From Methylomarinum vadi (GTDB lineage Bacteria; Pseudomonadota; Gammaproteobacteria; Methylococcales; Methylomonadaceae): 64,000 nucleotides of DNA. The notes under the pieces are model-generated. The model was not told the DNA's origin. It did not search any database and saw only the letters and a program-made list of their open reading frames with translations. Location of the stretch: contig NZ_JPON01000001.1 in the NCBI RefSeq assembly GCF_000733935.1, positions 3,794,623 to 3,858,622 of the forward strand, written 5' to 3'. Below, piece by piece: positions 22,750-37,546 of the stretch (the first letter of the stretch is position 1; each line of letters opens with the position of its first letter). The translations under genes and the position numbers were made by a program.

Positions 22750-23520
22750 CTATATTCTGACGGATGCAAACACCGAAAACAGAAATAACACGACACTGGC
22801 GATGATGATCATCGGCCCGGCCGCTATGCCGGAAAAGGCGTAGACGATGATACCGAGCAAACTGGCCAAGCCTCCGGCAAGGGTGCTGATCAGCGCATAA
22901 CTATTCAGGCTGGCGCTGATATTTTTCGCGGTACACGCCGGAATTGCCAGTAGCGCGGCGGTCATCAAGCCGCCGACGATGCGAACGCCCAGGGCGACGG
23001 TAATCGCGATACAGACCAGGTAAATGACGTTATTGCGCTTCAGGTCGATACCGCTGGTCTTGGCCAGATCGGGGGAAATTCCGGCCAATATCAGTTCCGG
23101 GTAAATGGCTTTGATGGCCAGATAAAGGCCTCCGGAAATGAGGACCGTCACCAACAGAGTAATATAGGAAATGTTTGAAATATCGCCCAACAAGGCGATA
23201 TCGGTTTCCTCCTTGGGTAAGAACAGAAACGCGGTCGCCAGCGAGGCGGAAAAAACCACCGCGGTCAATGCTTCCAAATGCAACGAGGTCTTACGTTCCA
23301 GCACGCCTATCAGCAACACGCCGAAACCGAGGAACAGAATCGCTCCCAGCGAGACATCGAAGTCGTAAAGCAAGGCCAAGGCAACGCCCGGCAAGGTCAA
23401 GTGGCCCAGCGCCCCCCCCATCAGCGTCATGCGTTTGGTCAGCATCAAAGAACCGAGATAGCCGGAAACCGCGCCGACCGCCACGCCCATGATCAGGGCA
23501 AGAACAATTTGTACCACCAT
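22750..23520 (-). CDS. Metal ABC transporter permease (ZnuB/MntB-like)
   Basis: 256 residues with about eight hydrophobic segments, the inner-membrane component of a manganese/zinc/iron-type (ABC-3 family) importer. Typical blocks are LMTKRMTLMGGALGHLTLPGVALALL (conserved S/G-H-x-x-L-P-G-V region) and GVRIVGGLMTAALLAIPACTAKNI near the C-terminal half. It follows its ATPase gene by five bases. No periplasmic solute-binding protein gene is present on either side, so that partner is encoded elsewhere or absent. Metal unknown; the divergent FeoAB operon hints at iron or manganese. Confidence 0.87.
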   Translation of the reverse strand: MVVQIVLALIMGVAVGAVSGYLGSLMLTKRMTLMGGALGHLTLPGVALALLYDFDVSLGAILFLGFGVLLIGVLERKTSLHLEALTAVVFSASLATAFLFLPKEETDIALLGDISNISYITLLVTVLISGGLYLAIKAIYPELILAGISPDLAKTSGIDLKRNNVIYLVCIAITVALGVRIVGGLMTAALLAIPACTAKNISASLNSYALISTLAGGLASLLGIIVYAFSGIAAGPMIIIASVVLFLFSVFASVRI

Positions 23521-23525
23521 GACTG

Positions 23526-24224
23526 TTATCCGTGTTGATGTTTGTAAAATTTGATGCCGGTGCCGTAAAGTTGTTTAAGTTGTTCCGGCGTCAACACCTC
23601 GTCGGGTTTGCCCATGCAGGTTTGTTGCTTGTTCAAGCAAATAACCTGGGTCGCGTATTCCCAAACGACGTTCAGGTCGTGGGTGACCAGCATTATGGTC
23701 AGATTCTGTTTGTGCCAGAAGCGGTACAACAGGCTGTAAATCGTCTCCTCGCCGCCGACGTCGATGCCGGAGGTCGGTTCGTCCAATATCAGTACATCGG
23801 GATTGTCCACTAGCGACCAACCGATCAGCATGCGTTGGAATTGGCCGGTCGACAATTGGCCGAACTGATGGGCCAGCAAGGACTCGTCGAGCCCCACTTC
23901 CTGGAAAATCGACAGAACCGCTTGACGGTCAGTGGTCTTGATGGCAAAGAATTCCTCGATCGTCAGCGGCGGCAGATTTTGCCGTTGCAGAAATTCCTGC
24001 GGCGGCAGGTAACTGATTTTGCGGGCATTCCACTCGACATCGCCTTGATAAGGCAACAAGTCGAGCAAGCCCCTAAGCAGCGTCGTCTTGCCGGCGCCGT
24101 TCGGGCCCAGGAAAATCAAGATATCCCCTTGCGACACGGTAAAGGATAGACCGCTGATTATCGGTTCCGCGCCATAATTTATCCGCAGGTCGCGCACCGT
24201 TAATAGTGTGTTTTTTTCATTCAT
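23526..24224 (-). CDS. Metal ABC transporter ATP-binding protein (ZnuC/MntA-like)
   Basis: 232 residues from ATG 24224, chosen because AGGA lies about nine bases upstream and the protein then starts MNEKNTLLTVRDLRINYG in the normal register. Walker A GPNGAGKTTLLRG, Q-loop region YLPPQEFLQR, signature LSTGQFQRMLIG (a variant of LSGGQ), Walker B LILDEPTSGID and switch histidine MLVTHDLN are all present. It energises the permease encoded just downstream. The pair is divergent from feoAB with 363 bp between the starts. Confidence 0.9.
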   Translation of the reverse strand: MNEKNTLLTVRDLRINYGAEPIISGLSFTVSQGDILIFLGPNGAGKTTLLRGLLDLLPYQGDVEWNARKISYLPPQEFLQRQNLPPLTIEEFFAIKTTDRQAVLSIFQEVGLDESLLAHQFGQLSTGQFQRMLIGWSLVDNPDVLILDEPTSGIDVGGEETIYSLLYRFWHKQNLTIMLVTHDLNVVWEYATQVICLNKQQTCMGKPDEVLTPEQLKQLYGTGIKFYKHQHG

Positions 24225-24587
24225 CGTCTTATTCCTGTGGTGGCAATAATATTCAAGTACGCTATGCCGTAATCGATCGACAGTCGATGCAGAAATCCAA
24301 TAGCGGCGGACCAATATCCTGTTAACCGATTTTAGTTGACTACTAGGCGTATTGCCGACTTGGTTTTATTATTGTACAGCGCCTTCAAACTGAACAGCTT
24401 TATCGCCGAGATTAACAAAATTTCGTCCGTTATCCGAGTTTGCCCGACAACAACGGATAAACTTTGCAAACTCAAGCGAAATTGTTTTAGCATTAATCAT
24501 AAGATAAAGCTAATTTTCTAATTCTTGCGATGATGGTTTGGCGATAGCAGGTCATTATCCAATGGGACCATAAAAGGACAGCTAAAC
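24225..24587. promoter_or_regulatory. Divergent control region of metal ABC and feoAB genes
   Basis: This AT-rich 363-bp stretch lies between the starts of the metal ABC genes and feoAB and must carry promoters for both. A short palindrome TAGTTGACTA at 24333-24342 (arms TAGT/ACTA) is the only symmetric element noticed. It faintly resembles DtxR/MntR-type operators, but the match is weak. No convincing Fur box was found by eye. The AT-rich run 24479-24530 would suit the feoAB promoter. Confidence 0.4.
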
Positions 24588-27119
24588 ATGTTGGTAAGCT
24601 TGCGGGAGATGAAGGTCGGCGAGCGCGGACGCGTTGCCGATTACGACAAAAGCTTTTTGCCTTACCGGCAAAAAATGTTGGCCATGGGGCTGACGATTGG
24701 CGCTGAATTCGAGGTCATCCGCAGCGCCCCACTTGGCGATCCGGTCGAGATCAGGGTGCGCGGCACCGACCTCAGTTTGCGCCGGAACGAAGTGGCCGGC
24801 CTGAAAGTGGAAAAATTGCCGGATGATGCAACGACTAACAAACCCCTTCCTTCCGACCGCCGTTTCACCGTCGCCGTCATCGGCAATCCCAATTGCGGCA
24901 AGACCACCTTATTCAACGGCCTGACCGGCGCCCGCCAGCATGTCGGCAACTGGGCGGGAGTGACGGTGGAACGCAAGAGCGGTTTTTACCGCTACGACGA
25001 CAAGCTGGTCGAAGTGGTCGATTTGCCCGGCATCTATGCCCTGGACGTCAGCGCCATGGCGACCTCGCTGGATGAAAAAATCGCCAGGGACTACATTCTG
25101 TCGCGCCAGGCCGACCTGATTATCAATATCGTCGACACATCCCATCTGGAACACAACCTGTATCTGACCACTCAATTGCTGGAAATGCGTCTGCCGTTGC
25201 TGGTGGTGCTGAATAACATGGACGATGCCAGCGGCCGCGACCTCGTCATCGATAGCGATGAAATCGCCCGCCGCCTGGCTTGTCCGTTGGAGTCGTTGAT
25301 GGCGACCCGCACCGACCAGGTCTGGACCCTGAAGTCGACTATCAACCGTTTGGCCGAACAGGCCCCGTTGTCGCAGGCGCCGTTCGTTTATCCCCCGGTT
25401 GTCGGCGAGGCGCTGGATCAATTACAGCCGCGGGTCGAACGGCAACTCGCGGGGCAACAGGGCGATGCGCGCTGGTTTGCCGCTAAATTGCTGGAACAGG
25501 ACGGTTTCGCCCTCGACCATGCCGATGCCGAGACGGTCGAGCTGGCGGCACGGCTTTGCCGGGAAATCGAGGACAAAACGGGCGAGGAGGCCGATATTCT
25601 GATCGTCGACAGTCGTTACGGCTTTATCGGTAATCTGGTGCGGGAGACGCTTAGACGGAAATCGGCCGCCAACCGGACACTGTCCGATAAGATCGACAAC
25701 ATCATGCTGCACCGGTTTTTGGCGATACCGATCTTCTTCGCCGTAATGTACCTGATGTTCACGTTCACGATCAAACTCGGACGCGCCTTCAAGCCGTTCT
25801 TCAACGATGTCGCCCAAGCGCTGTTTATCGACGGCACGGCGCATGTGCTGGCTTTATTGGACAGTCCGCAATGGTTGATTATGGTATTGTCCGCCGGCGT
25901 CGGAAACGGCATACGCGAAGTGGCCGCGTTCGTGCCGATTCTCGGTTTTTTGTACCTGTTCATTTCCTTGCTGGAGGAGTCGGGCTACATGGCGCGGGCG
26001 ACCTTCGCGATGGACCGCTTCATGCGTGTGCTGGGTCTGCCCGGCAAGGCCTTTGTGCCGATGATTCTGGGCTTCGGCTGTAACGTCCCGGCGATGATGG
26101 CGACCCGCACCCTGGAGCAACCCCGCGACCGCCTGCTGAGCATCCTGCTCAATCCCTTCATGACCTGCGGCGCGCGGCTGGCGGTGTTCACGCTGTTCGC
26201 CGCGGCGTTTTTTCCCGACAACGGCGAAATCGTCGTCTTTACCTTGTATGCGATCGGGGTGGGTTTCGCCGTGTTGACGGCATTATTGTTGAAACACACG
26301 TTTCTGCGCGAGGAGTTCTCGCTGGTGATGATGGAAATTCCCAGTTACCATGTGCCGAAATTGAAAAACGTCTGGCTCAACAGCTGGACCCGGGTCAGGG
26401 CTTTCGTCGTCCGGGTCGGCAAAATCATTATCATGATGGTCGTGATCTTGAACCTGCTCGGATCATTGGGCACCGATGGTTCGTTCAAACCGAACAACAT
26501 CGAACGTTCGGTGCTGAGCGCGGCCGGCCGCGTCGTGACGCCGGCATTGGCGCCTTTGGGGGTCGCCGAGGACAACTGGCCGGCAACCGTGGCCTTGTTC
26601 ACCGGCATCCTGCACAAGGTCGTCGTCATCAGCACCTTGAAAACGATTTATAGCGAGAACGCTCCCGCATCGGGGATGCACAAGCAAGATTACGATCTGG
26701 TCGAGGCTCTGCGGCGGGCCGTGCTGACCATACCGGCCGGGTTGAGCAAGATGTTCGGGTTGTCAGGCACGCCGCAGGCGCCTGGTGCGACGCCGTTTGC
26801 CGTCTCGCTGCAGCAACATTTCCAAGGACAAATCGGCGCCTTCGCCTATCTGCTGTTCGTGCTGTTGTATTTTCCTTGTATCGCCACGACCTCCGCCGCC
26901 TATGGCGAGTCGGGCCGGGCTTGGACAGTATTTATGGTATTGTGGGCGACGGCGCTGGCCTATCTGACCGCAACGGCGTTTTATCAATTGGCGACCTTTA
27001 GCCGACATCCGCTCGCTGCGACGCTCTGGCTGACGGGTATCGCCGTGTTCGTGGTTGCCGTAGTGCTATCATTTCGCTATTGGGGGAGACAGCGGGCTCA
27101 GTCTTCCGACTCCGTTTAA
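24588..27119 (+). CDS. feoB: Ferrous iron transporter, FeoA-FeoB fusion
   Basis: 843 residues. The first about 77 form an SH3-like FeoA domain (MLVSLREMKVGERGRVADYD...KMLAMGLTIGAEFEVIRSAPLGDP) fused to a complete FeoB. The FeoB GTPase G1 motif GNPNCGKTTLFNG begins at residue 99, G2 lies in NWAGVTVERK and G3 in DLPGIYAL. The transport part starts near 370 and includes two Gate motifs with conserved cysteines: LGFGCNVPAM with FMTCGARL, and FPCIATTSA later. It imports Fe(II) across the inner membrane. FeoA is usually separate, so the fusion ties the accessory domain to the channel. It opens an apparent operon with a P-type ATPase (24 bp) and a SufC/SufB-like pair. Confidence 0.95.
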   Translation: MLVSLREMKVGERGRVADYDKSFLPYRQKMLAMGLTIGAEFEVIRSAPLGDPVEIRVRGTDLSLRRNEVAGLKVEKLPDDATTNKPLPSDRRFTVAVIGNPNCGKTTLFNGLTGARQHVGNWAGVTVERKSGFYRYDDKLVEVVDLPGIYALDVSAMATSLDEKIARDYILSRQADLIINIVDTSHLEHNLYLTTQLLEMRLPLLVVLNNMDDASGRDLVIDSDEIARRLACPLESLMATRTDQVWTLKSTINRLAEQAPLSQAPFVYPPVVGEALDQLQPRVERQLAGQQGDARWFAAKLLEQDGFALDHADAETVELAARLCREIEDKTGEEADILIVDSRYGFIGNLVRETLRRKSAANRTLSDKIDNIMLHRFLAIPIFFAVMYLMFTFTIKLGRAFKPFFNDVAQALFIDGTAHVLALLDSPQWLIMVLSAGVGNGIREVAAFVPILGFLYLFISLLEESGYMARATFAMDRFMRVLGLPGKAFVPMILGFGCNVPAMMATRTLEQPRDRLLSILLNPFMTCGARLAVFTLFAAAFFPDNGEIVVFTLYAIGVGFAVLTALLLKHTFLREEFSLVMMEIPSYHVPKLKNVWLNSWTRVRAFVVRVGKIIIMMVVILNLLGSLGTDGSFKPNNIERSVLSAAGRVVTPALAPLGVAEDNWPATVALFTGILHKVVVISTLKTIYSENAPASGMHKQDYDLVEALRRAVLTIPAGLSKMFGLSGTPQAPGATPFAVSLQQHFQGQIGAFAYLLFVLLYFPCIATTSAAYGESGRAWTVFMVLWATALAYLTATAFYQLATFSRHPLAATLWLTGIAVFVVAVVLSFRYWGRQRAQSSDSV

Positions 27120-27143
27120 CATTCGACCAAGGGATTTCATGCC

Positions 27144-29132
27144 ATGTCTTATAAAGCTTATTTCGACAAAATCGATGCCGAACTACTGAAAGTCAGTCCG
27201 CGCGGCGACATCATGTTGCTGCGGGTCATCGCGGCGGTCATCCCGGTCCTGTTTTTCGGCCTGGACGCGCTTTACCGTATCCCCGTACTTTACTGGCTGG
27301 GCATGCCGTTTTATTTGTTTTGTCTGGCCTTGTATCTGGAAGGATTGCTGAAAAGCGTGTTGTTGATGCACAAGGTTTCGGCCGAGCTGCTGATCGTCTT
27401 GGTCATGACCATCACGCTGATCGACGGCGCTCCGTTGAGCGGGGCGATGGTCGCTTGGTTTATCGGTTTCGGCCTGTATATTTCCTTTACGATCATCAGA
27501 AAGAACCGGGAAAAAATCGAAAGCCTGATCGGGGAAGGGAAGAAAACCGCCAAAGTGTTGCAAGGCGCGGAAGTCAAGGAAATACCGATCAAGCAAATCC
27601 GCAAGCACAATATCGTCATCGTGCCCAAGGGGGCGATGATTCCGGTGGACGGCAACATCAGCGACGGCGCCTCGTCGATTGACGAGGCGGTAATCACCGG
27701 CGAACCGTTTCCTGTGTATAAGGAACGCGGCGCCGCCGTGGTTTCCGGTACGCTTAACCTGACCGCGCCGTTGCAAGTACAGGCGACCAAAGACGGCGAC
27801 GAATCGTTTCTGTCCGTCATCAGCCGGGAGATCGAAAACAGCCTGCAGAACAAATCGGAGCTGCAGCGCCGCGCCGATACCACGGTGCAGGTCCTGCTGC
27901 TCTCGGTCACCGCTTACGCCTTTTTGCTGTTGTTCATAACCGGCAGTCTGCATCTGATGGCGACCGCGCTGGCGGTCGTTTGCCCCTGCGCCTGGGCCTT
28001 GGCGACGCCGACCGCCTTCGCCGCCAATATCGGCCGCATGGCGCGTTCGAATATTCTGGCTCGCGGCGGCGAACCGCTGGAAAACATGCAGGACATCAAA
28101 ACCTTGATACTCGACAAGACCGGCACGGTGACGATGGCCGAACCCGAGGTCAGCCAGACCATCACCATCGATATCGCGGAACCGGATTTGTTGCGCCTGG
28201 CCGCGTCGGTCGAAGAACGTTTCGACCATCCGATCGCCCGCTCGATCGTCAATTTCGCCGCTAAACGGCAAATAACCGACTTGTTACCGGTCGAACAGGC
28301 CGAGGACCTGCCGGGCAGAGGCATCAAGGCCCGGATAGAGGGGCAGGAAGTCCTGCTCGGCAGTGCCGAAACCCTGGCCAGCCGCGATATCGAACTGCCC
28401 GCTATCGAATATACCGGCCGGGCCATTTGGGTGGCGGTGGATAACCGCGTCAGAGGCGTGATCGTGATCCGCGACATCATGCAAGCGGAAATGCAGGGAA
28501 TGGCGAACACGATTCGCGCGTGCGGCATCGAAAACGTCGTGTTGGCGACCGGCGACAACGAAGAGCAAGAAGCGAAACGGGTCGCCGATTACATCGGCGC
28601 CGACGAATATTTCTTCAATTGCACGCCGGCGGATAAAACCGCTCTGGTCAAGCGATTTCAGCAACGAGGCCGGGTAGCGATGGTCGGCGACGGCGTAAAC
28701 GACGCGCCGGCCCTGGCGGCGGCCAATGTCGGCATCGCCATCGGCGGGCATAAGAACGTCAATCTGGCGATCACGTCGGCGGACGTCGTCATCCTCGGCC
28801 AGGACGCCCAGGATTTGGTGACTATCCTTAAGCTGAGCCACAAAATGGGCGGCATCATTCGGCAGAATTATTTGTGGGCCGTCGGTTTCAACAGCGTGGG
28901 CCTGGCGCTGGCGACATTCGGCCTGCTCAATCCGATTTTCGCCGCGCTGCTGCATCATGTCAGTTCGGTCTTCGTCGTCGTCAATGCGGGCCGCCTGTAT
29001 TTTTCCGCGATCGAACGCTCCCTCGTCGGCCCCTTGTTCCAGAAAATGGACGATTACACCAACCGCCGGCAATTGTGCCGACTGGAACAAGCGGCAGACA
29101 AACCCGAAACGCTGGCGGAACAAGAGAGTTGA
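27144..29132 (+). CDS. P1B-type metal-translocating ATPase without N-terminal metal-binding domain
   Basis: 662 residues. The phosphorylation motif DKTGT is at 324-328, the actuator TGE at 185-187, and the transmembrane metal-site motif CPC at 280-282 (CPCAWALATPT). The P1B-specific HP motif is in FDHPIARSI, and the hinge is MVGDGVNDAPAL. The N-terminus has no heavy-metal-associated CxxC domain and no His-rich tail. The last membrane helices read NSVGLALATFGLLNP and HHVSSVFVVVNAGRL, which lack the Cu-type YN/MSS and Zn-type signatures I know. They somewhat recall CtpC-type (Mn or Fe/Zn) pumps. Substrate is therefore open; its place between FeoAB and a SufC/SufB-like pair suggests iron or manganese efflux or metal loading. 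Confidence 0.88.
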   Translation: MSYKAYFDKIDAELLKVSPRGDIMLLRVIAAVIPVLFFGLDALYRIPVLYWLGMPFYLFCLALYLEGLLKSVLLMHKVSAELLIVLVMTITLIDGAPLSGAMVAWFIGFGLYISFTIIRKNREKIESLIGEGKKTAKVLQGAEVKEIPIKQIRKHNIVIVPKGAMIPVDGNISDGASSIDEAVITGEPFPVYKERGAAVVSGTLNLTAPLQVQATKDGDESFLSVISREIENSLQNKSELQRRADTTVQVLLLSVTAYAFLLLFITGSLHLMATALAVVCPCAWALATPTAFAANIGRMARSNILARGGEPLENMQDIKTLILDKTGTVTMAEPEVSQTITIDIAEPDLLRLAASVEERFDHPIARSIVNFAAKRQITDLLPVEQAEDLPGRGIKARIEGQEVLLGSAETLASRDIELPAIEYTGRAIWVAVDNRVRGVIVIRDIMQAEMQGMANTIRACGIENVVLATGDNEEQEAKRVADYIGADEYFFNCTPADKTALVKRFQQRGRVAMVGDGVNDAPALAAANVGIAIGGHKNVNLAITSADVVILGQDAQDLVTILKLSHKMGGIIRQNYLWAVGFNSVGLALATFGLLNPIFAALLHHVSSVFVVVNAGRLYFSAIERSLVGPLFQKMDDYTNRRQLCRLEQAADKPETLAEQES

Positions 29133-29136
29133 GGCG

Positions 29137-29859
29137 ATGGCGCTATTAGACATCCGCCATCTGGTTTACACGGCAGGGCAGAAACGGATACTCGATGATT
29201 TGAACCTGGCCATCGATGCCGGTGAAATACACGCCCTGATCGGCACCAACGGCACCGGCAAGAGCACCTTGGCGCGGATGATCATGGGCAGCGAAGGCTA
29301 CCGCCCCGCCGGCGGGCAACTTATTTTCGCCGGACAGGATATCGCTTCCTGGTCGATGCAACGGCGGGCCAAGGCCGGGATTACCCTGGCCTGGCAGGAA
29401 CCGGCCTTGTTCGAGGGCATCACGGTAGGCGATTATCTGAGCCTGGGCCGGAGTCAAGACGTTGCCGCCGCTAGTCTGGAGCTGGTCGGACTCGATCCTG
29501 CCGTATATCTGCACCGCATGTTGGACAAAACGATGAGCGGCGGCGAAAGAAAGCGTATCGAACTGGCTTCGATGTGGGTTCTGCGCGCCAAGCTCTGCAT
29601 TCTGGACGAGCCGGTTTCCGGCATCGATTTGGTCTCGATAAAAAGCATCCTGGCGGTCATCCGGCGGATCAAACAACAGGGGTCGGCGATACTCTTGATC
29701 AGCCACCGCGAGGAAGCCGCCGAAATCGCCGATAAGGCTTCGCTGCTTTGCGGCGGAAAAATCGTTTCGAGCGGACAGCCCGAAACCATTATCGACCAAT
29801 ACAAGGCCCGAAACTGCCTGGTCTGCGACGGAAAGGAGTGTAGCCATGCAAGCCATTGA
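29137..29859 (+). CDS. SufC-like ABC ATPase (SmsC-like)
   Basis: 240 residues from ATG 29137, four bases after the ATPase stop. It has SufC features: GEIHALIGTNGTGKSTLARMIMG (Walker A), ITLAWQEPALFEGITV (Q-loop), the MSGGERKRIELASM signature, LCILDEPVSGID (Walker B) and LLISHREE. Soluble Suf ATPases drive conformational changes of the SufB/SufD scaffold on which Fe-S clusters are built. The C-terminal tail CLVCDGKECSHASH adds three cysteines and a histidine not normal for SufC, a possible metal or cluster site. The next gene starts 14 bases before this stop. Likely works with it as a two-component SmsCB-like scaffold. Confidence 0.85.
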   Translation: MALLDIRHLVYTAGQKRILDDLNLAIDAGEIHALIGTNGTGKSTLARMIMGSEGYRPAGGQLIFAGQDIASWSMQRRAKAGITLAWQEPALFEGITVGDYLSLGRSQDVAAASLELVGLDPAVYLHRMLDKTMSGGERKRIELASMWVLRAKLCILDEPVSGIDLVSIKSILAVIRRIKQQGSAILLISHREEAAEIADKASLLCGGKIVSSGQPETIIDQYKARNCLVCDGKECSHASH

Positions 29860-30781
29860 ACAATATTCGGCTTGGTTAAACAGCGCCGGGGCGGACGGCA
29901 ATGTTCTGAACGATCGCGATACCGCGCATCTGGTCGCCGACGGCCAACGCCTGTTGAGCCGGCAAACCATTCCCGGCGTGACCATGCAGATTGAGCAACA
30001 GGCCGAGTCGACGACGGCCAGGATTTGTATTGCAGAAAATATGCAGGTGCTTAAGCCGATCCATTTATGTTTCGGCCTGCTGCAACGGACAGGCGAGCAG
30101 CATTTCAGCATCGAAATCAAACTGGAGGCCGGCGCCAGGGTTCACTTTATCGCCCATGGTTTGTTCGCCAACGCCGAAATCCTCAGACACAGCATGGACA
30201 AACGAATCGACGTCGGCGCCGGCGCCGACATGCGTTTCACCGACGGCCATATCCACGGCCTTTCCGCCGGCATCGACGTAAAAACGACGGGTCAGGTGAC
30301 GGTCGCACGCAAGGGCAGGTATGCGGCGGATTTTTCCCTGACCAGCGGCTTGGTCGGTCGGCTCGATTTGAACGAAACGGTACAGGCCGAGGAATATGCC
30401 ATGGTCGAACTCAGTTCCCGCGTATTCGGCCACGCCGACGACCTGATCAACATCAATGAAACGGTCAGCCTGAACGGTAAATTTTCCCGCGGCATGATCA
30501 AGAGCCGGGTCGCCTTGGAGGATGACGCGCGGGCGGAAGTTTTCGGCACGACCGAAGGCCGCGCCGAGGGCGCCAGAGGCCACATGGACTGCCTGGAAAT
30601 CATCAAGGATAGGGCAGTCGGGCAATCGACGCCGCTGGTCAAGGTGTGCCACCCCCAGGCCAAAATCACCCATGAAGCGGCCATCGGCACCGTCGACAAG
30701 AAACAAATGGAAACCCTGATCGCCCACGGCCTGTCTCCGGAGCAGGCGACCGACATGATCGTGCTGGGGATGTTGCGCTGA
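29846..30781 (+). CDS. SufB/SufD-like scaffold protein (SmsB-like)
   Basis: 311 residues. The C-terminal half is a beta-helix of SufB/SufD type, closing with GHMDCLEI, PLVKVCHPQAKITHEAAIGTVDK and ETLIAHGLSPEQATDMIVLGMLR. These match the conserved end of SufB, SufD and archaeal SmsB; the Cys in GHMDC and His in THEAAIG are candidate cluster ligands. It is much shorter than E. coli SufB (about 495) or SufD (about 420), resembling the compact archaeal partner of SmsC. No sufA, sufS, sufE or second scaffold gene is next to it, so it is probably an additional pair and not the main Suf system. Last gene of the feoAB operon. Confidence 0.82.
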   Translation: MQAIEQYSAWLNSAGADGNVLNDRDTAHLVADGQRLLSRQTIPGVTMQIEQQAESTTARICIAENMQVLKPIHLCFGLLQRTGEQHFSIEIKLEAGARVHFIAHGLFANAEILRHSMDKRIDVGAGADMRFTDGHIHGLSAGIDVKTTGQVTVARKGRYAADFSLTSGLVGRLDLNETVQAEEYAMVELSSRVFGHADDLININETVSLNGKFSRGMIKSRVALEDDARAEVFGTTEGRAEGARGHMDCLEIIKDRAVGQSTPLVKVCHPQAKITHEAAIGTVDKKQMETLIAHGLSPEQATDMIVLGMLR

Positions 30782-31220
30782 GCGTTCGACGGACGGGAGG
30801 CGAACATCGGACAGTGAACGTATTCAGCTGTAGTAACCGCTTTCATCCCATTCTCTGGGAAGTTTCCTCGAAGGCAGGTAGGAACGCCGCCCTCGGCGCG
30901 ATGCGAGGGCGTTGTCCTTTACTATGAAAGTCGCAAAGCGTACATTAATCTCCCCTCTGGGAGGGTCGGGGAGAGGGAACGATCAGGCGCTTGACACTTC
31001 CATCGGCTGGGGTGGCGCCCAAGCGCCATGATCGTTAGGATATGGAAAAATATTAACCCGATTTCTTCTATCCTCATCGTTTCCATGCTTTAGCGTGGAA
31101 ACGCATCTAGGGGACGCTGCGCGTACCGCGCCGCGAAGCGACGCAGACGGGTCCCCACGCAGCAGGAGCATGGGGTCCAGAAGATAAGTTGGCTAGGAGC
31201 GCCTCCCCGGCGCGATGTTT
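30782..31220. repeat. Intergenic region with dispersed hairpin repeats
   Basis: About 440 bp between two convergent units. The segment 31079-31174 holds an imperfect hairpin, GTTTCCA (31079-31085) with TGGAAAC (31096-31102), followed by GGGGACGCTGCG and a second half ending CCCCACGCAGCAGGAGCATGG. This belongs to the same dispersed family seen at 40297-40365 and 41056-41165. The segment 30871-30920 also shows GC-rich inverted pieces. No gene is seen. Confidence 0.6.
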
Positions 31221-32633
31221 TTAAGGCTGCTGCTTCAGATCCTCGGCGGTCAAATCCGCGAGCGGCACGCCCTTGTATTCACCGGTCAGAGTCTTCAAAA
31301 AGGCGACGATGTTGCCGATTTCATCGCCGGTGAAGGTCTTGCCGAGCTGAACTTCGGCCATGATGCGCACCGCCTCGGGCAGCGTGTCGACCGAACCGTC
31401 GTGGAAATAGGGATAGGTCAGTTCTATGTTACGCAGGACCGGCACCTTGAAGAAATGGCGGTCTTTTTCGTCATGGGTGACGTTGAAACGGCCGTTGTCG
31501 ACCTCGGTCAACGGGCCGCCGCGCAATTCGAAATAGTCTCGCTTCACGCCCATTTTTTCATAAGATCTTCCGCCCAGGGCCGGGCCGAAGTGACAGGAGG
31601 CGCAATTGGATTTGAACAATTGATAGCCCGCCTGTTCGTCGACGCTCAAAACATTCGGTTCGCCGCGTAAATAACGGTCGAAACGCGAGTTGGGCGTGAC
31701 CAACGACTCCTCGAAAACGGCAATCGCATCGGTGACGGTTTCCTTGTTCAAGCCTTGTTCCGGATACAATTCGGCGAAGGCTTGTTGATAGTCGGGGACT
31801 TGTTTCAGTTTTTCGACGACATCGTCCCAGATCGCGCCCATTTCGATCGGGTTGGCGACCGGGCCGGCGGCCTGGGCCTGCAGATCCTTGGCGCGGCCGT
31901 CCCAGAATTGGGCGATGTTGTACATGGCGTTATAAACGGTCGGCGAATTGATCGGCCCCTGTTGGCCACGGATGCCGGTTGCGACCTTCGCCTGGTCGGT
32001 GCCGCCGCGGGTCAGGTCATGGCACGAGGCGCAATTTAGCGTGTCGTCGCCGGACAGCAGACGATCGTGAAACAGCTTGTCGCCCAGGGCCACTTTTTGT
32101 TCGTTCAGTTCCACCGTCAACGGCAAGGGCTGTACCGGTTCGCCCTTGAAAACGTCCGCCGAATCCTTGCTCCAGGCCAGTTTGCTTCGCTCTTCGGAGA
32201 TCCAGGATAAAATCCGGTCTCTTTCATCGGGCGTCAGCTTGCCTTCCCAATGCATCAGCAGATATAGCGGCGGCGGCATGCTGGCGTTGGCGACGACATG
32301 CTCCATGCGAGCTAACAACAGCGGACTAAAGGATTCCTCGCCGCTGTAGAGTTTTTTCGACAGAACCATGCGCGCCGAAGCTTGTTCGATATCCTGCTCC
32401 ATTAACTGTTTGGCGATCGGCAAATCGGCATAAATCGGCATCCGAGTCATGCCGGGCGAATGACAATCGACGCACTTTTCCTGCAAGATACCCGATACTT
32501 CGGCGAAACTGGCGGAGCTGCCCGCAACAGTGGGAATCGGTTCGTTTTTACCCTGCAGCCCGATCAGGTTGGAAATTGGAAAGAATAACAAGACGGCCAC
32601 GAGTATAAGTAATAACCATTGTATTTTTTTCAT
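31221..32633 (-). CDS. Tri-haem cytochrome c peroxidase / MauG-like protein
   Basis: 470 residues with an N-terminal hydrophobic signal or anchor (about 4-20). There are three CxxCH c-haem motifs: Cys54-His58 (CVDCH), Cys201-His205 (CASCH) and Cys343-His347 (CASCH). The last two correspond to the standard di-haem core of bacterial cytochrome c peroxidases/MauG. The first is in an added N-terminal c-type domain, as in three-haem quinol-type or MauG-related enzymes. It would act in the periplasm, reducing hydrogen peroxide or oxidising a protein cofactor. ATG 32633 starts MKKIQWLLLILV. Convergent with the feo operon. Exact substrate is not decidable. Confidence 0.87.
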   Translation of the reverse strand: MKKIQWLLLILVAVLLFFPISNLIGLQGKNEPIPTVAGSSASFAEVSGILQEKCVDCHSPGMTRMPIYADLPIAKQLMEQDIEQASARMVLSKKLYSGEESFSPLLLARMEHVVANASMPPPLYLLMHWEGKLTPDERDRILSWISEERSKLAWSKDSADVFKGEPVQPLPLTVELNEQKVALGDKLFHDRLLSGDDTLNCASCHDLTRGGTDQAKVATGIRGQQGPINSPTVYNAMYNIAQFWDGRAKDLQAQAAGPVANPIEMGAIWDDVVEKLKQVPDYQQAFAELYPEQGLNKETVTDAIAVFEESLVTPNSRFDRYLRGEPNVLSVDEQAGYQLFKSNCASCHFGPALGGRSYEKMGVKRDYFELRGGPLTEVDNGRFNVTHDEKDRHFFKVPVLRNIELTYPYFHDGSVDTLPEAVRIMAEVQLGKTFTGDEIGNIVAFLKTLTGEYKGVPLADLTAEDLKQQP

Positions 32634-32732
32634 TGTTGATTCCCATTAGTTTGAGGGGATTAACGTCCCTAATCGCTTACTCCGTTGGTGCGGCATCAGG
32701 AATGATGAAGGACGGTTCTATCGCAATAGTTT

Positions 32733-33101
32733 CTATGTCCGATGCTGATGTTTGTGCTCGTGCTCATGCGGCTCCAGGGGTTCAGTCTTTAGCGTACCGT
32801 CGAGATAGGCATGGACCGCACTGTCCGGTTCCGTTTCAAGCGTCACCAAGGCCTCGATATTCTTTTCCTGCAACCGGCGCGCCAAACCGCTCCCCATGCC
32901 GCCAGAAATCAAAACCTGTACGTCGTCCAAAGGAGAGGGCGCTAATGGCGAACTTTCATGAAAGGATTGTTCCTTGGGAAATTCGAGCAAGATTTTATCG
33001 GTCACCCTATTGTTTTCGACCGAATAGATCCAGAACTTCCTACAACGTCCGGTGTGTCCGGTGATTTGCTTACGATTTTGGCTGGCAACGGCTATTTTCA
33101 T
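32733..33101 (-). CDS. NifX/NafY-type iron-molybdenum cofactor binding-like protein
   Basis: 122 residues beginning MKIAVASQNRKQITGHTGRCRKFWIY, the signature of the dinitrogenase iron-molybdenum cofactor (NifX/NifB C-terminal) family. VLISGGMGSGLARRLQEKNIEALVT follows in the usual place. The C-terminus is a His/Glu-rich tail (EPHEHEHKHQHRT) likely to bind metal. No nif genes are seen in the window, so a role as a small metal-cluster carrier is as likely as nitrogenase cofactor work. It lies 99 bp upstream of the peroxidase gene on the same strand and could be co-transcribed with it. Confidence 0.82.
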   Translation of the reverse strand: MKIAVASQNRKQITGHTGRCRKFWIYSVENNRVTDKILLEFPKEQSFHESSPLAPSPLDDVQVLISGGMGSGLARRLQEKNIEALVTLETEPDSAVHAYLDGTLKTEPLEPHEHEHKHQHRT

Positions 33102-33257
33102 AAACGAGTCATATCCTCTTTCTCCGTTAAGAATATAAAAATAAAGCTATTTCGAGCGTCTTTGCTTGCCGTCCGCAATGTCAAACGGCTCATTCCCTAA
33201 ACAGTCTGGGCTAAACCGGCGCGGACCGGCTACCCAGTGCATGGCACTATTAAACGG

Positions 33258-33764
33258 TTACTTATAACCCGGCGGTAAAATAGGTTCGATGCCTTCAAAT
33301 TCCGCTTTAGGGTGATGCTTGGTGATCGATTGACTGATTTCCTCTATGCGTTCCTTGGGGATGTCGACCATGACCAAGAATTCTCCCTGTTCGATCGCTT
33401 CTTCATATTGTTTGACTTTGGAGTTGCCTACCTGTAGTCCCGCCAAGCCGCTCATAATCGCGCCGATCGTTGCACCATAAAACAAGATGCCCAATATTGG
33501 CCCACCGGCAATGGCGAAGCCGGCAAAGCGTAAACCAACCAATCCCGCCAATAAGCCGGTGGTTGCGCCCAATGCCGCGCCGCGTTCCACCGCCGGAATA
33601 AAATCGGTTTTTTGAAATTCGTTTGCTTCCGGCAAATCCTCCAGCGGCGTGTCCCTTTTTGCCAGGATATGCATGTGTCTGTCCTCGATGCCTTGCGAGC
33701 GCAGCTCCTCGACCACCTTGCGGGTAATGTCGATGTTCGGCACCAAAAAATATATTCTTCTCAT
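33258..33764 (-). CDS. Small membrane protein, DUF1269/glycine-zipper-like
   Basis: 168 residues from ATG 33764, preceded by AGGAG at seven bases. It starts MRRIYFLVPNIDITRKVVEELRSQGI, then has a central glycine-rich hydrophobic hairpin (GAALGATTGLLAGLVGLRFAGFAIAG and GATIGAIMSGLAGL), and ends with a charged ferredoxin-like stretch (FLVMVDIPKERIEEISQSITKHH). This two-part layout is common in proteins annotated as DUF1269 or as stress-related inner-membrane proteins. Function unknown. A longer frame to 33860 lacks a ribosome binding site. Confidence 0.7.
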   Translation of the reverse strand: MRRIYFLVPNIDITRKVVEELRSQGIEDRHMHILAKRDTPLEDLPEANEFQKTDFIPAVERGAALGATTGLLAGLVGLRFAGFAIAGGPILGILFYGATIGAIMSGLAGLQVGNSKVKQYEEAIEQGEFLVMVDIPKERIEEISQSITKHHPKAEFEGIEPILPPGYK

Positions 33765-33900
33765 TGTAGTCTCCTGTTTGTTGGCTGGACCTATAAAAAC
33801 TACAGGTAATGATAGTGTATAAATCCACCCTATTTCGATTCGGACAGTGCTGCAGAGCAATTAAATGCTAACTCTTTAGGCATGCCTTTATACCTAAGTC

Positions 33901-33995: not shown

Positions 33996-34160
33996 AACAT
34001 TTTTTTATAAAACGATGCTCTTTAGGATGTATAACATAAAGCTAATATACTTGAAAGATCTTCGAACCCTTTTTGAGTTCACTTTCAGTCGAGTTGACGG
34101 AGAAAAGATCAGTTTCCGGTATTACCGAGGAATTTTTTACAGGCTACCCGCCCAAAAAGG

Positions 34161-35902
34161 AGGCTGTCGTAAAAGCCCCCCAACCAGCTACATACGGTAA
34201 AATAACCCTATCCAAACCTATTAGAAATAGATCAATGGCAGCCGAAGTGAACATTAGACCCGTCAGGACATTGTATAGCGCCAAGCAGTATTCGCTATTC
34301 GATGAATGCGAGGTTGAACCGTTACCTGAGTTGATCGCTCAATCGATCTCGAGCGAACCGATGGCCCATTTTGAAGCGCCCGACCCGCGCGGCTTATCGA
34401 TCAACGGTAAACCGCTCGGCGAACATCTGGAGCACGCCGGCTTAACCATCCCGTTGAAATTGCGCCCCTTCCTGCAATCGCTATCCTTCGCCGAGTTCGA
34501 AGCCCGTTATCGGCCCGGCGGGCGTCCGCCGTATGCGCCACGTGCGATGGTGGGGATTATTCTCTACGGCCTGTTACAAGGCATCAGCAGCCTGCGCGAC
34601 TTGGAGCGTTTAGCTCGAGCCGATGTGGGGTGTTGGTGGCTAAGTGGCGGTATCATGCCGGATCACTCAGTCATTGGCCGTTTCGTCCATCAGCATGCCG
34701 AATCATTGACGACCGAATTTTTCGATCAACTGGCGCGCCGTACTTTGAAAGTCACAGGCTCAGGCACGACGACGTTGGCGGGCGACGGTACCGTGATCGA
34801 AGCCATGTCCTCCCGGTTTCGATTGATGAAGGAAGAAGCGCTCAACCAAGCCTTGGCGCAAGCGAAGGAAGCCGCGCAAGCCAACCCAAACGATGCGGCT
34901 GCGACTAAGCGTTTGAACGGTCTGGAACAAGCCCAAGCCGAGCTAAAGTCTCGCCAGCAAAAACAAGCCGCCAAAGGCAAAGATCCGGCCAAGACCCAAG
35001 TACAAAGCAACGAGCCGGAGGCGGTATTACAGCCGCAAAAGAACTCCAAAGACTTTCGCAGCAGTTATAAACCGTCGGTATTGGCGAACGACAATCGAGT
35101 GATCGTGGCTTGCGACGTTCATCCTTCCAGTGAAACCGAGGTGGTGCCAGGTTTACTGGATCGCGCCCAAGCCCTGGGAGGCGTCGAAACAGCTCTGTTC
35201 GATGCTGGCTATTTCAGCAATGGCGTCTTGGATACTGCTGAGCAACACAACATCGAATTGCTTTGTCCGGAAGGCCAAAGTGAAGGAGACGATTGGAACA
35301 AACAATCCAACAAACAAATCCCCAAAAGCCGCTTTATTTATCAGGCCGACGACGACACTTATTGCTGTCCGGGGCAACAACGCTTGACTCGCCGTCACAC
35401 CTGCAAAGGCGGTAAAAGTGGCCATGCTTATACCGTCTACGCCTGCGATGCCTGTTCAGACTGTCCGCTGAAATCCCAATGCACGCGTAGCGAAAGCGGT
35501 CGCACCCTCAAACGCTATGACAGCGATACCCAAAAAGAAGCCCTGCGCCTGAAAATGGCCCAGCCCGAACCTCGGCAACGCTATCGGCAGCGGCAGGCCA
35601 TGGTGGAGCCAGTCTTCAGTCAGCTACGCGGTCGCCAAGGCTTGAATCGCTTTCGCCGTAAAGGTTTGGCGGGCGTCAAAGTGGAATTCGCCTTGCACGC
35701 CATGGCCTACAATCTGAGCCGCGCATTAGTGGCAGCTCTTTTTCGCGCTTTATATCATTGGCTTAGCCGGTTTATGAGCTCGTTTGACCGAAAGTTCGAC
35801 ATTTGTCATGGTTAAACTACTGACTTGCCAGCTTCGCCGGCCGTGGGAAATACGGCCGGTTTCCAGTGGTAAATCAAAGAAATTGGGGTTTTACGACAGC
35901 CT
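34161..35902 (+). mobile_element. IS1182-like insertion sequence, copy 1
   Basis: About 1742 bp with terminal inverted repeats AGGCTGTCGTAAAA at the left and its complement TTTTACGACAGCCT at the right. The match even extends two bases outward on each side (GG / CC). The element carries one transposase gene in the + direction. Comparison with the second copy (57672-59415, opposite orientation) fixes the ends. No direct target duplication is visible at this copy: left flank ends AAAAAGG, right flank begins CCATAGGG. Confidence 0.88.
34235..35815 (+). CDS. IS1182-family transposase
   Basis: 526 residues from ATG 34235, the same start as the second copy. An N-terminal DUF772-type region (residues about 70-150) contains YAPRAMVGIILYGLLQGISSLRDLE and PDHSVIGRF. 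It is followed by the DDE catalytic domain, with LAGDGTVIEAM, ALFDAGYFSNGVLD and the C-terminal MVEPVFSQLRGRQGLNRFRRKGL, where the Glu completes the DDE triad. A Cys cluster (CPGQ... CDACSDCPLKSQC) lies between. It differs from the other copy at only four residues that I can see (V/A, R/K, H/R, I/S), so both copies are recent and probably intact. A frame extending 54 codons upstream crosses the IS end and is not the real start. Confidence 0.93.
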   Translation: MAAEVNIRPVRTLYSAKQYSLFDECEVEPLPELIAQSISSEPMAHFEAPDPRGLSINGKPLGEHLEHAGLTIPLKLRPFLQSLSFAEFEARYRPGGRPPYAPRAMVGIILYGLLQGISSLRDLERLARADVGCWWLSGGIMPDHSVIGRFVHQHAESLTTEFFDQLARRTLKVTGSGTTTLAGDGTVIEAMSSRFRLMKEEALNQALAQAKEAAQANPNDAAATKRLNGLEQAQAELKSRQQKQAAKGKDPAKTQVQSNEPEAVLQPQKNSKDFRSSYKPSVLANDNRVIVACDVHPSSETEVVPGLLDRAQALGGVETALFDAGYFSNGVLDTAEQHNIELLCPEGQSEGDDWNKQSNKQIPKSRFIYQADDDTYCCPGQQRLTRRHTCKGGKSGHAYTVYACDACSDCPLKSQCTRSESGRTLKRYDSDTQKEALRLKMAQPEPRQRYRQRQAMVEPVFSQLRGRQGLNRFRRKGLAGVKVEFALHAMAYNLSRALVAALFRALYHWLSRFMSSFDRKFDICHG

Positions 35903-36001: not shown

Positions 36002-37546
36002 ATGAAAAAATTGCCGATTGGTATTCAAACATTCTCTGAACTGATCGACGGTAATTATTATTATGTCGACAAAACCCCGCTGATTGCCGAGCTGATTGCT
36101 TCGGGTAAATATTATTTTCTGGCGCGGCCGCGAAGATTCGGCAAATCGTTGTTGGTTAGCACGCTTAAATCGGTCTTTGCCGGCGAGAAGGCTTTATTTG
36201 ATCGCTTATATTTGCAAGACCAATGGGATTGGTCGGTGAGTTATCCGGTGATACATATCAGTTTCGGAGGGGGTGTCGTCAGTTCGGCGGCTATGTTGGA
36301 CGAGCGTTTTCGGGCAATTTTGGACGAGACGGCGGAGCTTTATCGTGTTGAGTTGCAGCATGACGACCTGGCGAATCGGTTTTCCGAATTGATCAAACGA
36401 TTGGCTGATCGATTTCAGCAGCGGGTCGTCGTGTTGGTCGATGAATACGATAAGCCTATTTTGGATAATATCGAACATGCGGAGCGCGCCGTTTCCATCA
36501 GAGAAGGTCTGCGCAATATTTATTCTGTGATCAAAGACAGGGACGCTTATCTCAAATTCGCGTTACTCACCGGTGTGAGCAAATTCAGCAAAGTCAGCTT
36601 GTTCAGTGGCTTGAACAATTTGCAGGATATCTCTTTGGATTGCCGCTATGCCGCGTTATGCGGTTATACTTTGGCGGAAATTAAATCTGTGTTCAACGAG
36701 CGTTTGCAGGGAGTGGACTTCAGCCAGTTGGCCGAGTGGTATAACGGCTATAACTTTTTGGGCGAGAAGGTCTATAACCCATTCGATGTGTTGCTGTATC
36801 TGGAACAGCGTTTGTTCAAGAATTATTGGTTCGAGAGCGGTAGTCCGGGATTTCTGATTAAGTTGGTTCGAGAGCGACAGTATTCTGTTCCCGATTTGGA
36901 GAATGTGGTTGTCGACGATGCGATGCTGACCGGTTTCGATATCGACGACATCACGCTGGAAAACGTATTATTTCAGACCGGATATTTGACTATCGAGCGT
37001 GTGGAAGAATTGGGCGGCGAGTGTTTTTATCATCTGACCTACCCAAACCGCGAGGTCAAGGCCAGCTTGAACAGCCACTTGCTGCGGGATTTGATGCATG
37101 CTCAAGCGGGTCTCGTGACGCGTCAGCAAATGCGCATTTATAACGCTTTCGAGCAGGCCGACCCGGAACAATTGCGGCAGGCTTTGACCGCGCTGTTCGC
37201 CTCGATTTCGAATGATTGGTATCGGCAAAACCAGTTGGCCCATTATGAAGGTTATTATGCTTCCATCGTGTATTGTTGTTTGGCTGCTTTGGGGCTAACC
37301 GTGACGGCGGAAGATGTCACCAATAAGGGTAGGATTGATTTGACTGTGAAGTTGGCGGAAAAGGTCTTTATTATTGAATTTAAAGTACTGGAAGGAAAGG
37401 GCGAGGCGGGGCGTGCATTGGCGCAGATCAAGGCAAGAAAATATTGGCAAAAATACGCCAGTGGAGAATTTCGGGTTATGTTGATCGGTATCGAGTTTGA
37501 TAAAACCGAACGCAACATCGTCCGTTTCGATTGGGAGGCTGTTTAA
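36002..37546 (+). CDS. AAA-ATPase-like / PD-(D/E)XK nuclease domain protein
   Basis: 514 residues. The N-terminal AAA-ATPase-like domain begins MKKLPIGIQTFSELIDGNYYYVDKT, with a Walker A-like ARPRRFGKSLL near residue 41 and VVLVDEYDKPILD as Walker B. The C-terminal region has the PD-(D/E)XK nuclease-like pattern GRIDLTVKLAEKVFIIEFKV (Asp and Glu-x-Lys near 443-461). This pairing is widespread and expanded in many bacteria, but its biological role is not established; mobile or defence-related roles have been suggested. It starts right after the IS1182-like copy 1 and before the toxin-antitoxin cluster. Confidence 0.85.
   Translation: MKKLPIGIQTFSELIDGNYYYVDKTPLIAELIASGKYYFLARPRRFGKSLLVSTLKSVFAGEKALFDRLYLQDQWDWSVSYPVIHISFGGGVVSSAAMLDERFRAILDETAELYRVELQHDDLANRFSELIKRLADRFQQRVVVLVDEYDKPILDNIEHAERAVSIREGLRNIYSVIKDRDAYLKFALLTGVSKFSKVSLFSGLNNLQDISLDCRYAALCGYTLAEIKSVFNERLQGVDFSQLAEWYNGYNFLGEKVYNPFDVLLYLEQRLFKNYWFESGSPGFLIKLVRERQYSVPDLENVVVDDAMLTGFDIDDITLENVLFQTGYLTIERVEELGGECFYHLTYPNREVKASLNSHLLRDLMHAQAGLVTRQQMRIYNAFEQADPEQLRQALTALFASISNDWYRQNQLAHYEGYYASIVYCCLAALGLTVTAEDVTNKGRIDLTVKLAEKVFIIEFKVLEGKGEAGRALAQIKARKYWQKYASGEFRVMLIGIEFDKTERNIVRFDWEAV

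What the first reader, a model, noticed from the sequence alone, without database searches (positions are those of the whole stretch)
24225..30781. FeoAB fusion, P1B ATPase and a compact SufC/SufB-like pair in one operon
The four genes have gaps of 24 and 4 bp and a 14-bp overlap, so they look like one transcription unit: ferrous iron import (FeoA fused to FeoB), a P1B-type pump without a metal-binding domain, and a two-gene SufC plus short SufB-like pair resembling the archaeal minimal SmsCB system. No other suf gene is adjacent, so this is probably an additional scaffold dedicated to the iron brought in by this operon, or a metal-loading device. I do not know of a described module with this exact order.
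Basis: partly seen in the sequence, partly recalled or inferred. Interest (0 to 1): 0.75.

Follow-up and report, generated by a model that had tools for sequence, protein, structure and literature searches.

The report
Archaeal-type iron-sulfur assembler in methanotrophs
A methane-oxidising bacterium that already has a normal iron-sulfur cluster factory also carries, in the same gene row as a ferrous-iron importer, a tiny two-protein factory of the kind known mainly from oxygen-hating archaea, which raises the testable question of how and why such an old machine is used by an oxygen-using cell.

Summary
In detail: FeoAB fusion, P1B ATPase without a metal-binding domain, SufC-like and short SufB-like genes lie head to tail (gaps 24 and 4 bp, overlap 14 bp). 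The last two are an SMS system (SmsCB): their best solved relatives are M. jannaschii SmsC and SmsB, well ahead of SUF proteins, and 16 of 16 SmsC rows keep the [4Fe-4S]-binding cysteines (C205, C227, C230, plus C235), which the host's own SufC lacks. The genome has a separate SUF operon, so SmsCB is additional. SmsB occurs in 14 of 311 genomes of the order; the four genes are whole and contiguous in five. In four genomes (two of the 14 and two others) only smsCB remnants follow FeoAB-P1B. P1B and SmsB co-occur (12 of 14 versus 22 of 297, uncorrected for kinship). The 'feo-type' SmsB has glycine where a second group and M. jannaschii have a cysteine that a published mapping equates with the SUF persulfide acceptor, which fits direct sulfide use. 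Best reading: an accessory, patchily spread Fe-S assembly cassette fed by ferrous iron and free sulfide. Function is inferred; in one methanogen deleting its SufBC systems had no effect. The pump's metal is unknown.

The parts
24588..27119 (+). feoAB: FeoA domain (residues 3-75) fused to FeoB, ferrous iron importer
   Evidence: FeoA 65 bits, FeoB_N 188.4 bits, Gate, FeoB_C over Pfam cut-offs; NCBIfam FeoB 777.3 bits over cut-off 683
27144..29132 (+). P1B-type metal ATPase, no N-terminal metal-binding domain; motifs CPCAWALATPT, FNxxGL, LNP, HHxSSV
   Evidence: TIGR01525 465.6 bits over cut-off 346.25; no HMA domain; motifs invariant in 32 aligned rows
29137..29859 (+). smsC: ABC ATPase of an SMS Fe-S assembly system
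   Evidence: MJ0035 SmsC 218.6 bits versus 113.4 and 100.6 for SufC of PDB 2d2e and of E. coli
29749..29751 (+). codon of SmsC C205, aligns with [4Fe-4S] ligand C218 of M. jannaschii SmsC
   Evidence: ligand from PMC12192291
29815..29826 (+). codons of SmsC C227-x-x-C230, correspond to the CXXC ligands C239 and C242 of M. jannaschii SmsC
   Evidence: conserved in 16 of 16 rows
29839..29841 (+). codon of SmsC C235, a fourth C-terminal cysteine invariant in 16 of 16 rows
   Evidence: role unknown
29846..30781 (+). smsB: short SufB/D-like partner (311 aa); starts inside smsC (14-nt overlap)
   Evidence: MJ0034 SmsB 194 bits over residues 29-310; the only other distinct protein hit has 57.1 bits
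30158..30160 (+). codon of SmsB G105, at the place of the putative persulfide-acceptor cysteine
   Evidence: Gly in 10 of 10 feo-type rows, Cys in 6 of 6 other rows
30888..30911 (+). possible intrinsic terminator about 107 bp after smsB
   Evidence: 8-pair stem, weak T-run; consensus scan only, with 22 such sites against 12.2 expected in the 10-kb region
22750..24233 (-). znuB/znuC-like metal ABC transporter genes, divergent from feoAB; similar genes recur at several relatives' loci
31221..33860 (-). di-haem cytochrome c peroxidase/MauG-like, NifX/NifB-like small protein and YflT-like protein; similar genes recur beside FeoAB-P1B in several relatives

Best explanation
SmsCB is a complete SMS-type [4Fe-4S] scaffold present as an accessory cassette. 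SmsC forms an SmsC2B2 complex with SmsB; Fe(II) brought in by the co-encoded FeoAB and free sulfide (made by the cell's persulfide-reducing enzymes, or diffusing in from sulfidic surroundings) are assembled on C205/C227/C230 of SmsC; ATP binding by SmsC resets the complex after transfer to client proteins. It runs beside the SUF operon, most usefully when Fe(II) and sulfide are at hand and oxygen is low. The P1B pump is an export valve that keeps Fe(II) or a competing metal in bounds while FeoAB is open. Shown here: identity, ligand residues, gene order, recurrence, a separate SUF. Inferred: complex formation, sulfide use, iron channelling, pump substrate and direction, conditions of use.
For: Closest solved relatives are MJ0035/MJ0034. 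SMS cluster ligands conserved in 16 of 16 SmsC rows and absent from the host's SufC, whose only cysteine is C167; published mutants show such cysteines hold the cluster (PMC12192291; PMC12584684 passages). Host has a SUF operon. FeoAB-P1B-SmsC-SmsB whole and contiguous in 5 of the 14 SmsB carriers among 311 genomes. P1B in 12 of 14 SmsB carriers versus 22 of 297 others (not corrected for kinship); an SmsC of the second group also follows P1B in another family of the order (G091, L072, contig end). Position 105 is Gly in feo-type SmsB only. A pyridine-nucleotide-disulfide reductase with a rhodanese domain, resembling CoA-disulfide/persulfide reductases, lies directly upstream of FeoAB in four genomes of one genus (smsCB is a remnant in three of them) and directly downstream of smsB in G082; related enzymes reduce persulfides and polysulfides (PMC7969121 abstract). 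dN/dS 0.08-0.26.
Against: In Methanosarcina acetivorans deletion of both sufCB clusters affected neither growth nor total Fe-S content (PMC10500019 abstract), so an SMS is not always a working main scaffold. M. jannaschii SMS rescued E. coli only without air (PMC12192291), whereas this host is a methane oxidiser (AMO/PmoA family gene). The reductase-rhodanese gene is below the CoA-disulfide reductase cut-offs (446.7 of 578.8, 361.4 of 458, 327.5 of 394) and in the window genome its homologues lie at 2.37 and 2.44 Mb, far from smsCB. FeoAB-P1B lives without whole smsCB in 14 of 19 genomes and smsCB lives without FeoAB in others. No Fur-like site above the shuffled level upstream of FeoAB in the window. 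The metal carried by P1B is unknown: the general copper and cadmium models both score.
Confidence: 0.57

Rival explanations
1. Metal and metalloid stress kit: SmsCB repairs or replaces Fe-S clusters destroyed by toxic metals or arsenic, and the linked P1B, ZIP, CDF or RND transporters move the offending metal; iron import is incidental.
For: SmsCB of the second group sits near arsenic-type genes in G120 (ACR3 and ArsH over cut-off, ArsR-type regulator), G082 (ACR3-like, low-molecular-weight phosphatase fold) and G529 (ACR3-like, ArsP-type permease), and on the Sulfuricella plasmid beside RND efflux and CDF genes; a ZIP gene follows smsB directly in L025, L026 and L029; one P1B locus without smsCB (G052, L089) has an ACR3-like gene about 5 kb away.
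Against: No ACR3 or ArsH hit (the only two arsenic queries used) in the fetched stretches of the feo-type smsCB loci; there the most frequent partners are FeoAB and P1B.
Confidence: 0.25
2. Dedicated maturation factor for a client in the same island, such as the radical SAM protein or the NifX-like protein, not a general Fe-S system.
For: A radical SAM gene lies just upstream of smsC in G118, upstream of feoAB in G202 and G002, and beyond P1B in G040; NifX-like genes recur. Methanococcal SufBC co-purified with the radical SAM protein MmpX (PMC12584684 passages).
Against: The 64-kb window has no such radical SAM gene, and the gene also stands in a P1B locus of a genome without an SmsB match (G039, L092) and in one with only an smsC remnant (G231, L078).
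Confidence: 0.12
3. A dispensable passenger on its way out, with little present function.
For: Remnants of smsCB with different breakpoints behind P1B in G239/G240 (shared junction), G241, and G231 (near a contig end, so misassembly is possible); in the MAG G126 feoAB, P1B and smsC are broken while smsB is nearly whole. Deletion of sufCB in M. acetivorans had no effect on growth or Fe-S content.
Against: smsC and smsB are both whole in 11 of the 14 carriers of the order, ligands conserved, dN/dS 0.08-0.26.
Confidence: 0.1
4. The P1B pump loads an iron-storage membrane compartment (ferrosome-like, FezB-like) and SmsCB works with it.
For: Ferrosomes need the transporter FezB (PMC12574912 passages), a putative ferrous iron transporter (PMC10979944 passages); that FezB is a P1B ATPase is recalled. 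FeoAB lies directly upstream of P1B in 19 of 34 P1B genomes (upstream DNA was cut short in some of the other 15).
Against: I had no FezB sequence to compare; no FezC-like DUF4405 domain came up among the neighbours scanned, a weak negative from partial scans.
Confidence: 0.05

Closest known systems
SMS (SmsC2B2) of Methanocaldococcus jannaschii, MJ0035/MJ0034
   Same: smsC and smsB as a two-gene unit; short SmsB; SmsC with Walker A, ABC signature and the three cluster cysteines
   Different: Bacterial, methane-oxidising host with its own SUF; in a feoAB-P1B gene row; SmsB has Gly105 where M. jannaschii has Cys; fourth cysteine C235
Methanococcal minimal SufB2C2 (PMC12584684, passages)
   Same: CXnCXXC ligand motif in the ATPase subunit; conserved Cys and His-Glu in SufB
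   Different: There the only SUF components of an obligate anaerobe; here beside a SUF operon
sufCB of Methanosarcina acetivorans (PMC10500019, abstract)
   Same: Minimal SufBC that is not the cell's only Fe-S system; precedent for a dispensable one
   Different: Anaerobic archaeon; sequences and neighbourhood not compared here
SUF (SufBC2D) as in E. coli and in this genome at 4.23 Mb
   Same: ABC ATPase plus SUFBD-core partner
   Different: No SufD, SufS or SufE/SufU in the unit; host SufC has no C-terminal cysteines; SmsB 311 aa versus SufB about 483 aa
SMS of bacteria named in PMC12192291 (Clostridium tetani, C. novyi, Dehalobacter, Syntrophus)
   Same: Cysteines in the C-terminal region of SmsC
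   Different: Those hosts are anaerobes (recalled); gene neighbourhoods not compared here
FezB, the ferrosome transporter
   Same: Transporter linked to iron
   Different: No sequence comparison was possible; no other Fez gene identified

Membership tests
SMS (SmsCB) | Closest to SmsC/SmsB rather than SufC/SufB/SufD | tested here: met
   218.6 versus 113.4/100.6 bits for C; 194 versus 57.1 bits for B; host SufC is a very distant outgroup. Archaeal SmsC were not in the tree
SMS (SmsCB) | Two adjacent genes, no SufD/SufS/SufE/SufU in the unit | tested here: met
SMS (SmsCB) | C-terminal cluster ligands (C218, C239, C242 in M. jannaschii) | tested here: met
   C205, C227, C230 in 16 of 16 SmsC rows; five remnants without a C-terminus left out
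SMS (SmsCB) | Intact ABC ATPase motifs | tested here: met
   GTNGTGKST, MSGGERKR, CILDEP invariant in six rows
SMS (SmsCB) | NCBIfam SmsB model NF052511 over cut-off | tested here: not met
   64.8 bits versus 650. The model is 445 positions long and of type 'exception', so I take it to describe a longer SmsB form and not as defining for the short one; that is my judgement
SMS (SmsCB) | SmsC2B2 complex, one [4Fe-4S] cluster, transfer to apo-protein, sulfide-dependent rescue of an isc suf strain | not testable with these tools
   needs biochemistry
SUF | sufC/sufB/sufD family cut-offs | tested here: not met
   sufC 164 of 212.8; sufD 50 of 222; sufB 38 of 346.4
P1B ATPase (heavy-metal) | TIGR01525 cut-off and CPC motif in the membrane | tested here: met
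   465.6 of 346.25 bits; CPC in all 32 rows
P1B ATPase, copper branch (TIGR01511) | family cut-off | tested here: not met
   358.8 of 397 bits; yet the best solved relatives are copper exporters, 276.5 bits
P1B ATPase, cadmium branch (TIGR01512) | family cut-off | tested here: met
   373.7 of 313.5 bits; does not fix the metal
Ferrosome FezB | sequence clade and fez gene partners | not testable with these tools
   defining papers not held; no reference sequence at hand
FeoAB | FeoA and FeoB domains over cut-off in one chain | tested here: met

The most novel reading that the evidence does not exclude
A sulfide-fed Fe-S scaffold of archaeal type, tied in the literature to anoxic cells, has been re-deployed by lateral transfer as an iron-gated accessory module in oxygen-using methanotrophs. 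In this group SmsB has given up the persulfide-acceptor cysteine, making the device independent of cysteine desulfurase and coupled to ferrous iron import and local sulfide production.
Probability: 0.38. Interest if true: 0.77.

Novelty: new variant of a known kind. Interest (0 to 1): 0.6.

Why it matters
The papers seen on SMS leave its sulfur source in aerobes, its oxygen limits and its partners open, and report both an SMS that can replace ISC and SUF in E. coli (M. jannaschii) and one that can be deleted without effect (M. acetivorans). This cassette stands in methane oxidisers that also have SUF, next to iron import and, in some relatives, next to possible persulfide reductases, and it comes in two groups that differ at one telling cysteine. 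At least one carrier record, Methylomonas sp. WSC-6, is not labelled a MAG, so deletion and complementation tests in a background that should survive them look possible.

Tried and rejected
Promoter scan: 4 sites in 10 kb against 5.2 expected, so no claim. Fur-box match upstream of FeoAB in 19 loci: best 9-14 of 19 positions, the window 12; 500 shuffles of the window's stretch gave 10-15 (8 of 500 reached 14, the score of one locus, L081), so no Fur claim. P1B as an ordinary copper pump: TIGR01511 cut-off not reached although the best solved relatives are copper exporters; CopA residues used for comparison are recalled; left open. FezB identity: defining papers not held, secondary passages only. 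'Only SufBC of the organism' rejected. NifU_N search for an ISC-type scaffold: one hit, inside the suf operon. Co-occurrence of the reductase-rhodanese gene with SmsB (11 of 14 versus 38 of 297; higher-scoring subset 8 of 14 versus 18 of 297) is uncorrected for kinship and genome size, the subset was chosen after seeing the list, and it is kept as a lead only. The SmsC tree sets apart seven rows (98/99) but leaves the other nine unresolved, so I call those 'feo-type' a group and not a clade. Not in print, as far as seen: searches, of which I saw titles and abstract openings of the rows listed (20 of 160, 2 of 3, 20 of 40, 6 of 6, 5 of 4,273); no row listed was about SmsCB with FeoB and a P1B ATPase or about SmsCB in methanotrophs; passages of PMC9164220, one of the two rows listed, treat the three families separately; the other row was not opened. 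The founding SMS paper (10.1038/s41559-022-01857-1) is not held, so its distribution tables were not seen. No structure prediction was run.
Full report
What is there. Four + strand genes, feoAB (24588-27119), a P1B ATPase gene (27144-29132), a SufC-like ABC ATPase gene (29137-29859) and a short SufB-like gene (29846-30781), follow each other with gaps of 24 and 4 bp and a 14-nt overlap. In the window an AGGAG ribosome-site-like stretch precedes smsB inside smsC, and the 14-nt overlap is the same in the seven feo-type loci measured. The genome is one contig of 4.34 Mb with an AMO/PmoA-family gene, which with its kin makes it a methanotroph; by equal contig lengths its relatives include Methylomonas sp. 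WSC-6, a Methylobacter MAG, Methylomicrobium sp. wino1 and Methylotuvimicrobium alcaliphilum 20Z.

The pair is an SMS system. Against all solved structures the ATPase matches M. jannaschii SmsC (MJ0035) with 218.6 bits; next come eukaryotic ABC transporters at 119.2, and true SufC proteins give 113.4 and 100.6. The partner matches SmsB (MJ0034) with 194 bits over residues 29-310, and the only other protein hit has 57.1 bits. Neither reaches the SUF family cut-offs, nor does the partner reach the NCBIfam SmsB cut-off (64.8 of 650), a model of 445 positions. Of PMC12192291 I read the introduction, conclusions, section 12 and the first two of three parts of the results and passages; it shows by cryo-EM and mutants that C218, C239 and C242 of SmsC hold a [4Fe-4S] cluster. 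Passages of PMC12584684 show the same for C218, C237, C240 of a methanococcal SufC and say the motif is present in only some bacterial SufC. In the window protein these are C205, C227 and C230. They and a fourth, C235, are invariant in 16 of 16 SmsC rows; five remnants without a C-terminus were left out. The genome's own SufC has a single cysteine, C167.

It is additional. The same genome has sufB, sufC, sufD, a class V aminotransferase (SufS-like) and a NifU_N protein behind an Rrf2-type regulator gene at 4.23-4.24 Mb. It also has two other strong FeoB_N hits, at 0.95 and 1.27 Mb.

How conserved. A profile of six SmsB rows finds 14 of 311 genomes of the order, 2 of 398 sampled from the phylum (one is the window's) and 3 of 369 sampled from the class (one is the window's) at E <= 1e-25, and a tblastn search finds one plasmid record, pSCD of Sulfuricella denitrificans. 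Of the 14, five have all four genes whole and contiguous: the window, G002, G202 (WSC-6), G242 and G243. In G126 (a MAG) the order is there but feoAB, P1B and smsC are broken and smsB is nearly whole. G239 (20Z) and G240 (wino1) have FeoAB and P1B followed by one shared smsC-smsB deletion remnant. G040, G118, G268 and G222 have smsCB in the same region as P1B in other arrangements (20 kb apart in G222); G120 and G082 have smsCB of a second group near arsenic-type genes. That is 5+1+2+4+2. Outside the 14, G241 has a different remnant (and a FeoAB match that stops at residue 615), G231 has 39 residues of smsC near a contig end, and G091 has a second-group smsC directly after P1B at a contig end. 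P1B itself is in 34 of 311 genomes, with this type of FeoAB directly upstream in 19; upstream DNA was cut short in some of the other 15. P1B is in 12 of the 14 SmsB carriers and 22 of 297 others, Fisher p 3e-11, not corrected for kinship. Where smsCB is lacking, a ZIP transporter gene often follows P1B directly, for instance on the conjugative plasmid MEALZ_p of 20Z, so smsCB looks like a cassette set between P1B and ZIP. Pairwise dN/dS of 0.08-0.26 for both genes suggests that whole copies are kept by selection.

Two groups. The SmsC tree sets apart, with support 98/99, seven rows (G120, G082, G091, G529, G786, G903, Sulfuricella); the other nine, the feo-type, are unresolved among themselves. 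All 16 SmsB rows keep C75, C249, H276 and E277, but position 105 is Gly in 10 of 10 feo-type rows and Cys in 6 of 6 others; M. jannaschii has Cys there in the alignment. PMC12584684 equates methanococcal C175 with E. coli SufB C254, which PMC5571166 (abstract and passages) shows to be the acceptor of persulfide from SufE. I placed C175 on position 105 by its 30-residue spacing from C145, so this step is inference. It suggests that feo-type SmsCB does not take sulfur from a SufSE/SufU-type desulfurase through that residue. [quoted passage not shown] it also weakens any claim that the residue matters in SMS.

Sulfur and iron supply. A pyridine-nucleotide-disulfide reductase with a rhodanese domain, resembling but scoring below the CoA-disulfide reductase models, lies directly upstream of feoAB in G239, G240, G241 and G243 (one genus; smsCB is a remnant in three of these) and directly after smsB in G082; on pSCD and in G529 smsCB stands with thioredoxin, OsmC, FmdE and CDF genes, and with TauE or rhodanese genes. 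[quoted passage not shown] In the window genome the homologous genes are elsewhere. M. jannaschii SMS works in E. coli with Na2S and only without air (PMC12192291). Sulfide supply remains a lead. Against a vital role in general: in Methanosarcina acetivorans deletion of both sufCB clusters changed neither growth nor total Fe-S content (PMC10500019, abstract).

The pump. The P1B family here is uniform: in 32 aligned rows CPCAWALATPT, FN, GL, LNP and HHxSSV are invariant. Residues of this kind set metal choice in P1B pumps, and the histidine in place of a CopA-type methionine could mean a divalent metal (both recalled); adjacency to FeoAB points to iron, while the best solved relatives are copper exporters. 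None of this is proof.

Judgement. The identification as SMS is strong (about 0.9). The full working model, an accessory sulfide-fed scaffold served by the operon's iron, I put at 0.57; rivals are a metal or arsenic stress role (0.25), a private maturation factor (0.12), a decaying passenger (0.10) and a ferrosome-like device (0.05). These overlap, so they need not sum to one. I call it a new variant of a known kind.

Noticed in passing
window 32733-33101, 31221-32633, 33258-33860; loci L025, L040, L074, L076 and others: A recurring set of NifX/NifB-like protein, di-haem cytochrome c peroxidase (MauG-like) and YflT-like protein, with DUF2202 and ZnuBC-like genes at some loci, stands near FeoAB-P1B in Methylococcales, also on the conjugative plasmid MEALZ_p.
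   Followed up: partly
L025:3609-4559, L027:3493-4437, L033:7626-8570: A radical SAM protein gene of about 315 aa lies beside smsCB or feoAB in several relatives; possible client of SmsCB.
   Followed up: partly
L036, L037 between P1B and the genes beyond smsB; L073; L078: Deletion remnants of smsCB behind P1B; G239 and G240 share one junction, G241 and G231 have others.
   Followed up: yes
L031 (same contig as L008): In the MAG G126 feoAB, P1B and smsC are broken with internal deletions while smsB is nearly whole; decay or an assembly fault.
   Followed up: no
L034, L035, L038, L039: Second-group smsCB sits near arsenic-type genes in L034, L035 and L038; an FmdE-domain gene lies within a few genes upstream of smsC in L035, L038 and L039, while the gene next upstream in L034 is a universal-stress-protein type.
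   Followed up: partly
L089: An ACR3-like gene (split in two frames) lies about 5 kb from a P1B gene in a genome without an SmsB match.
   Followed up: no
window 34073-35815 and 36002-37546: A DDE transposase gene and an AAA-ATPase/PDDEXK gene stand downstream of the island.
   Followed up: no
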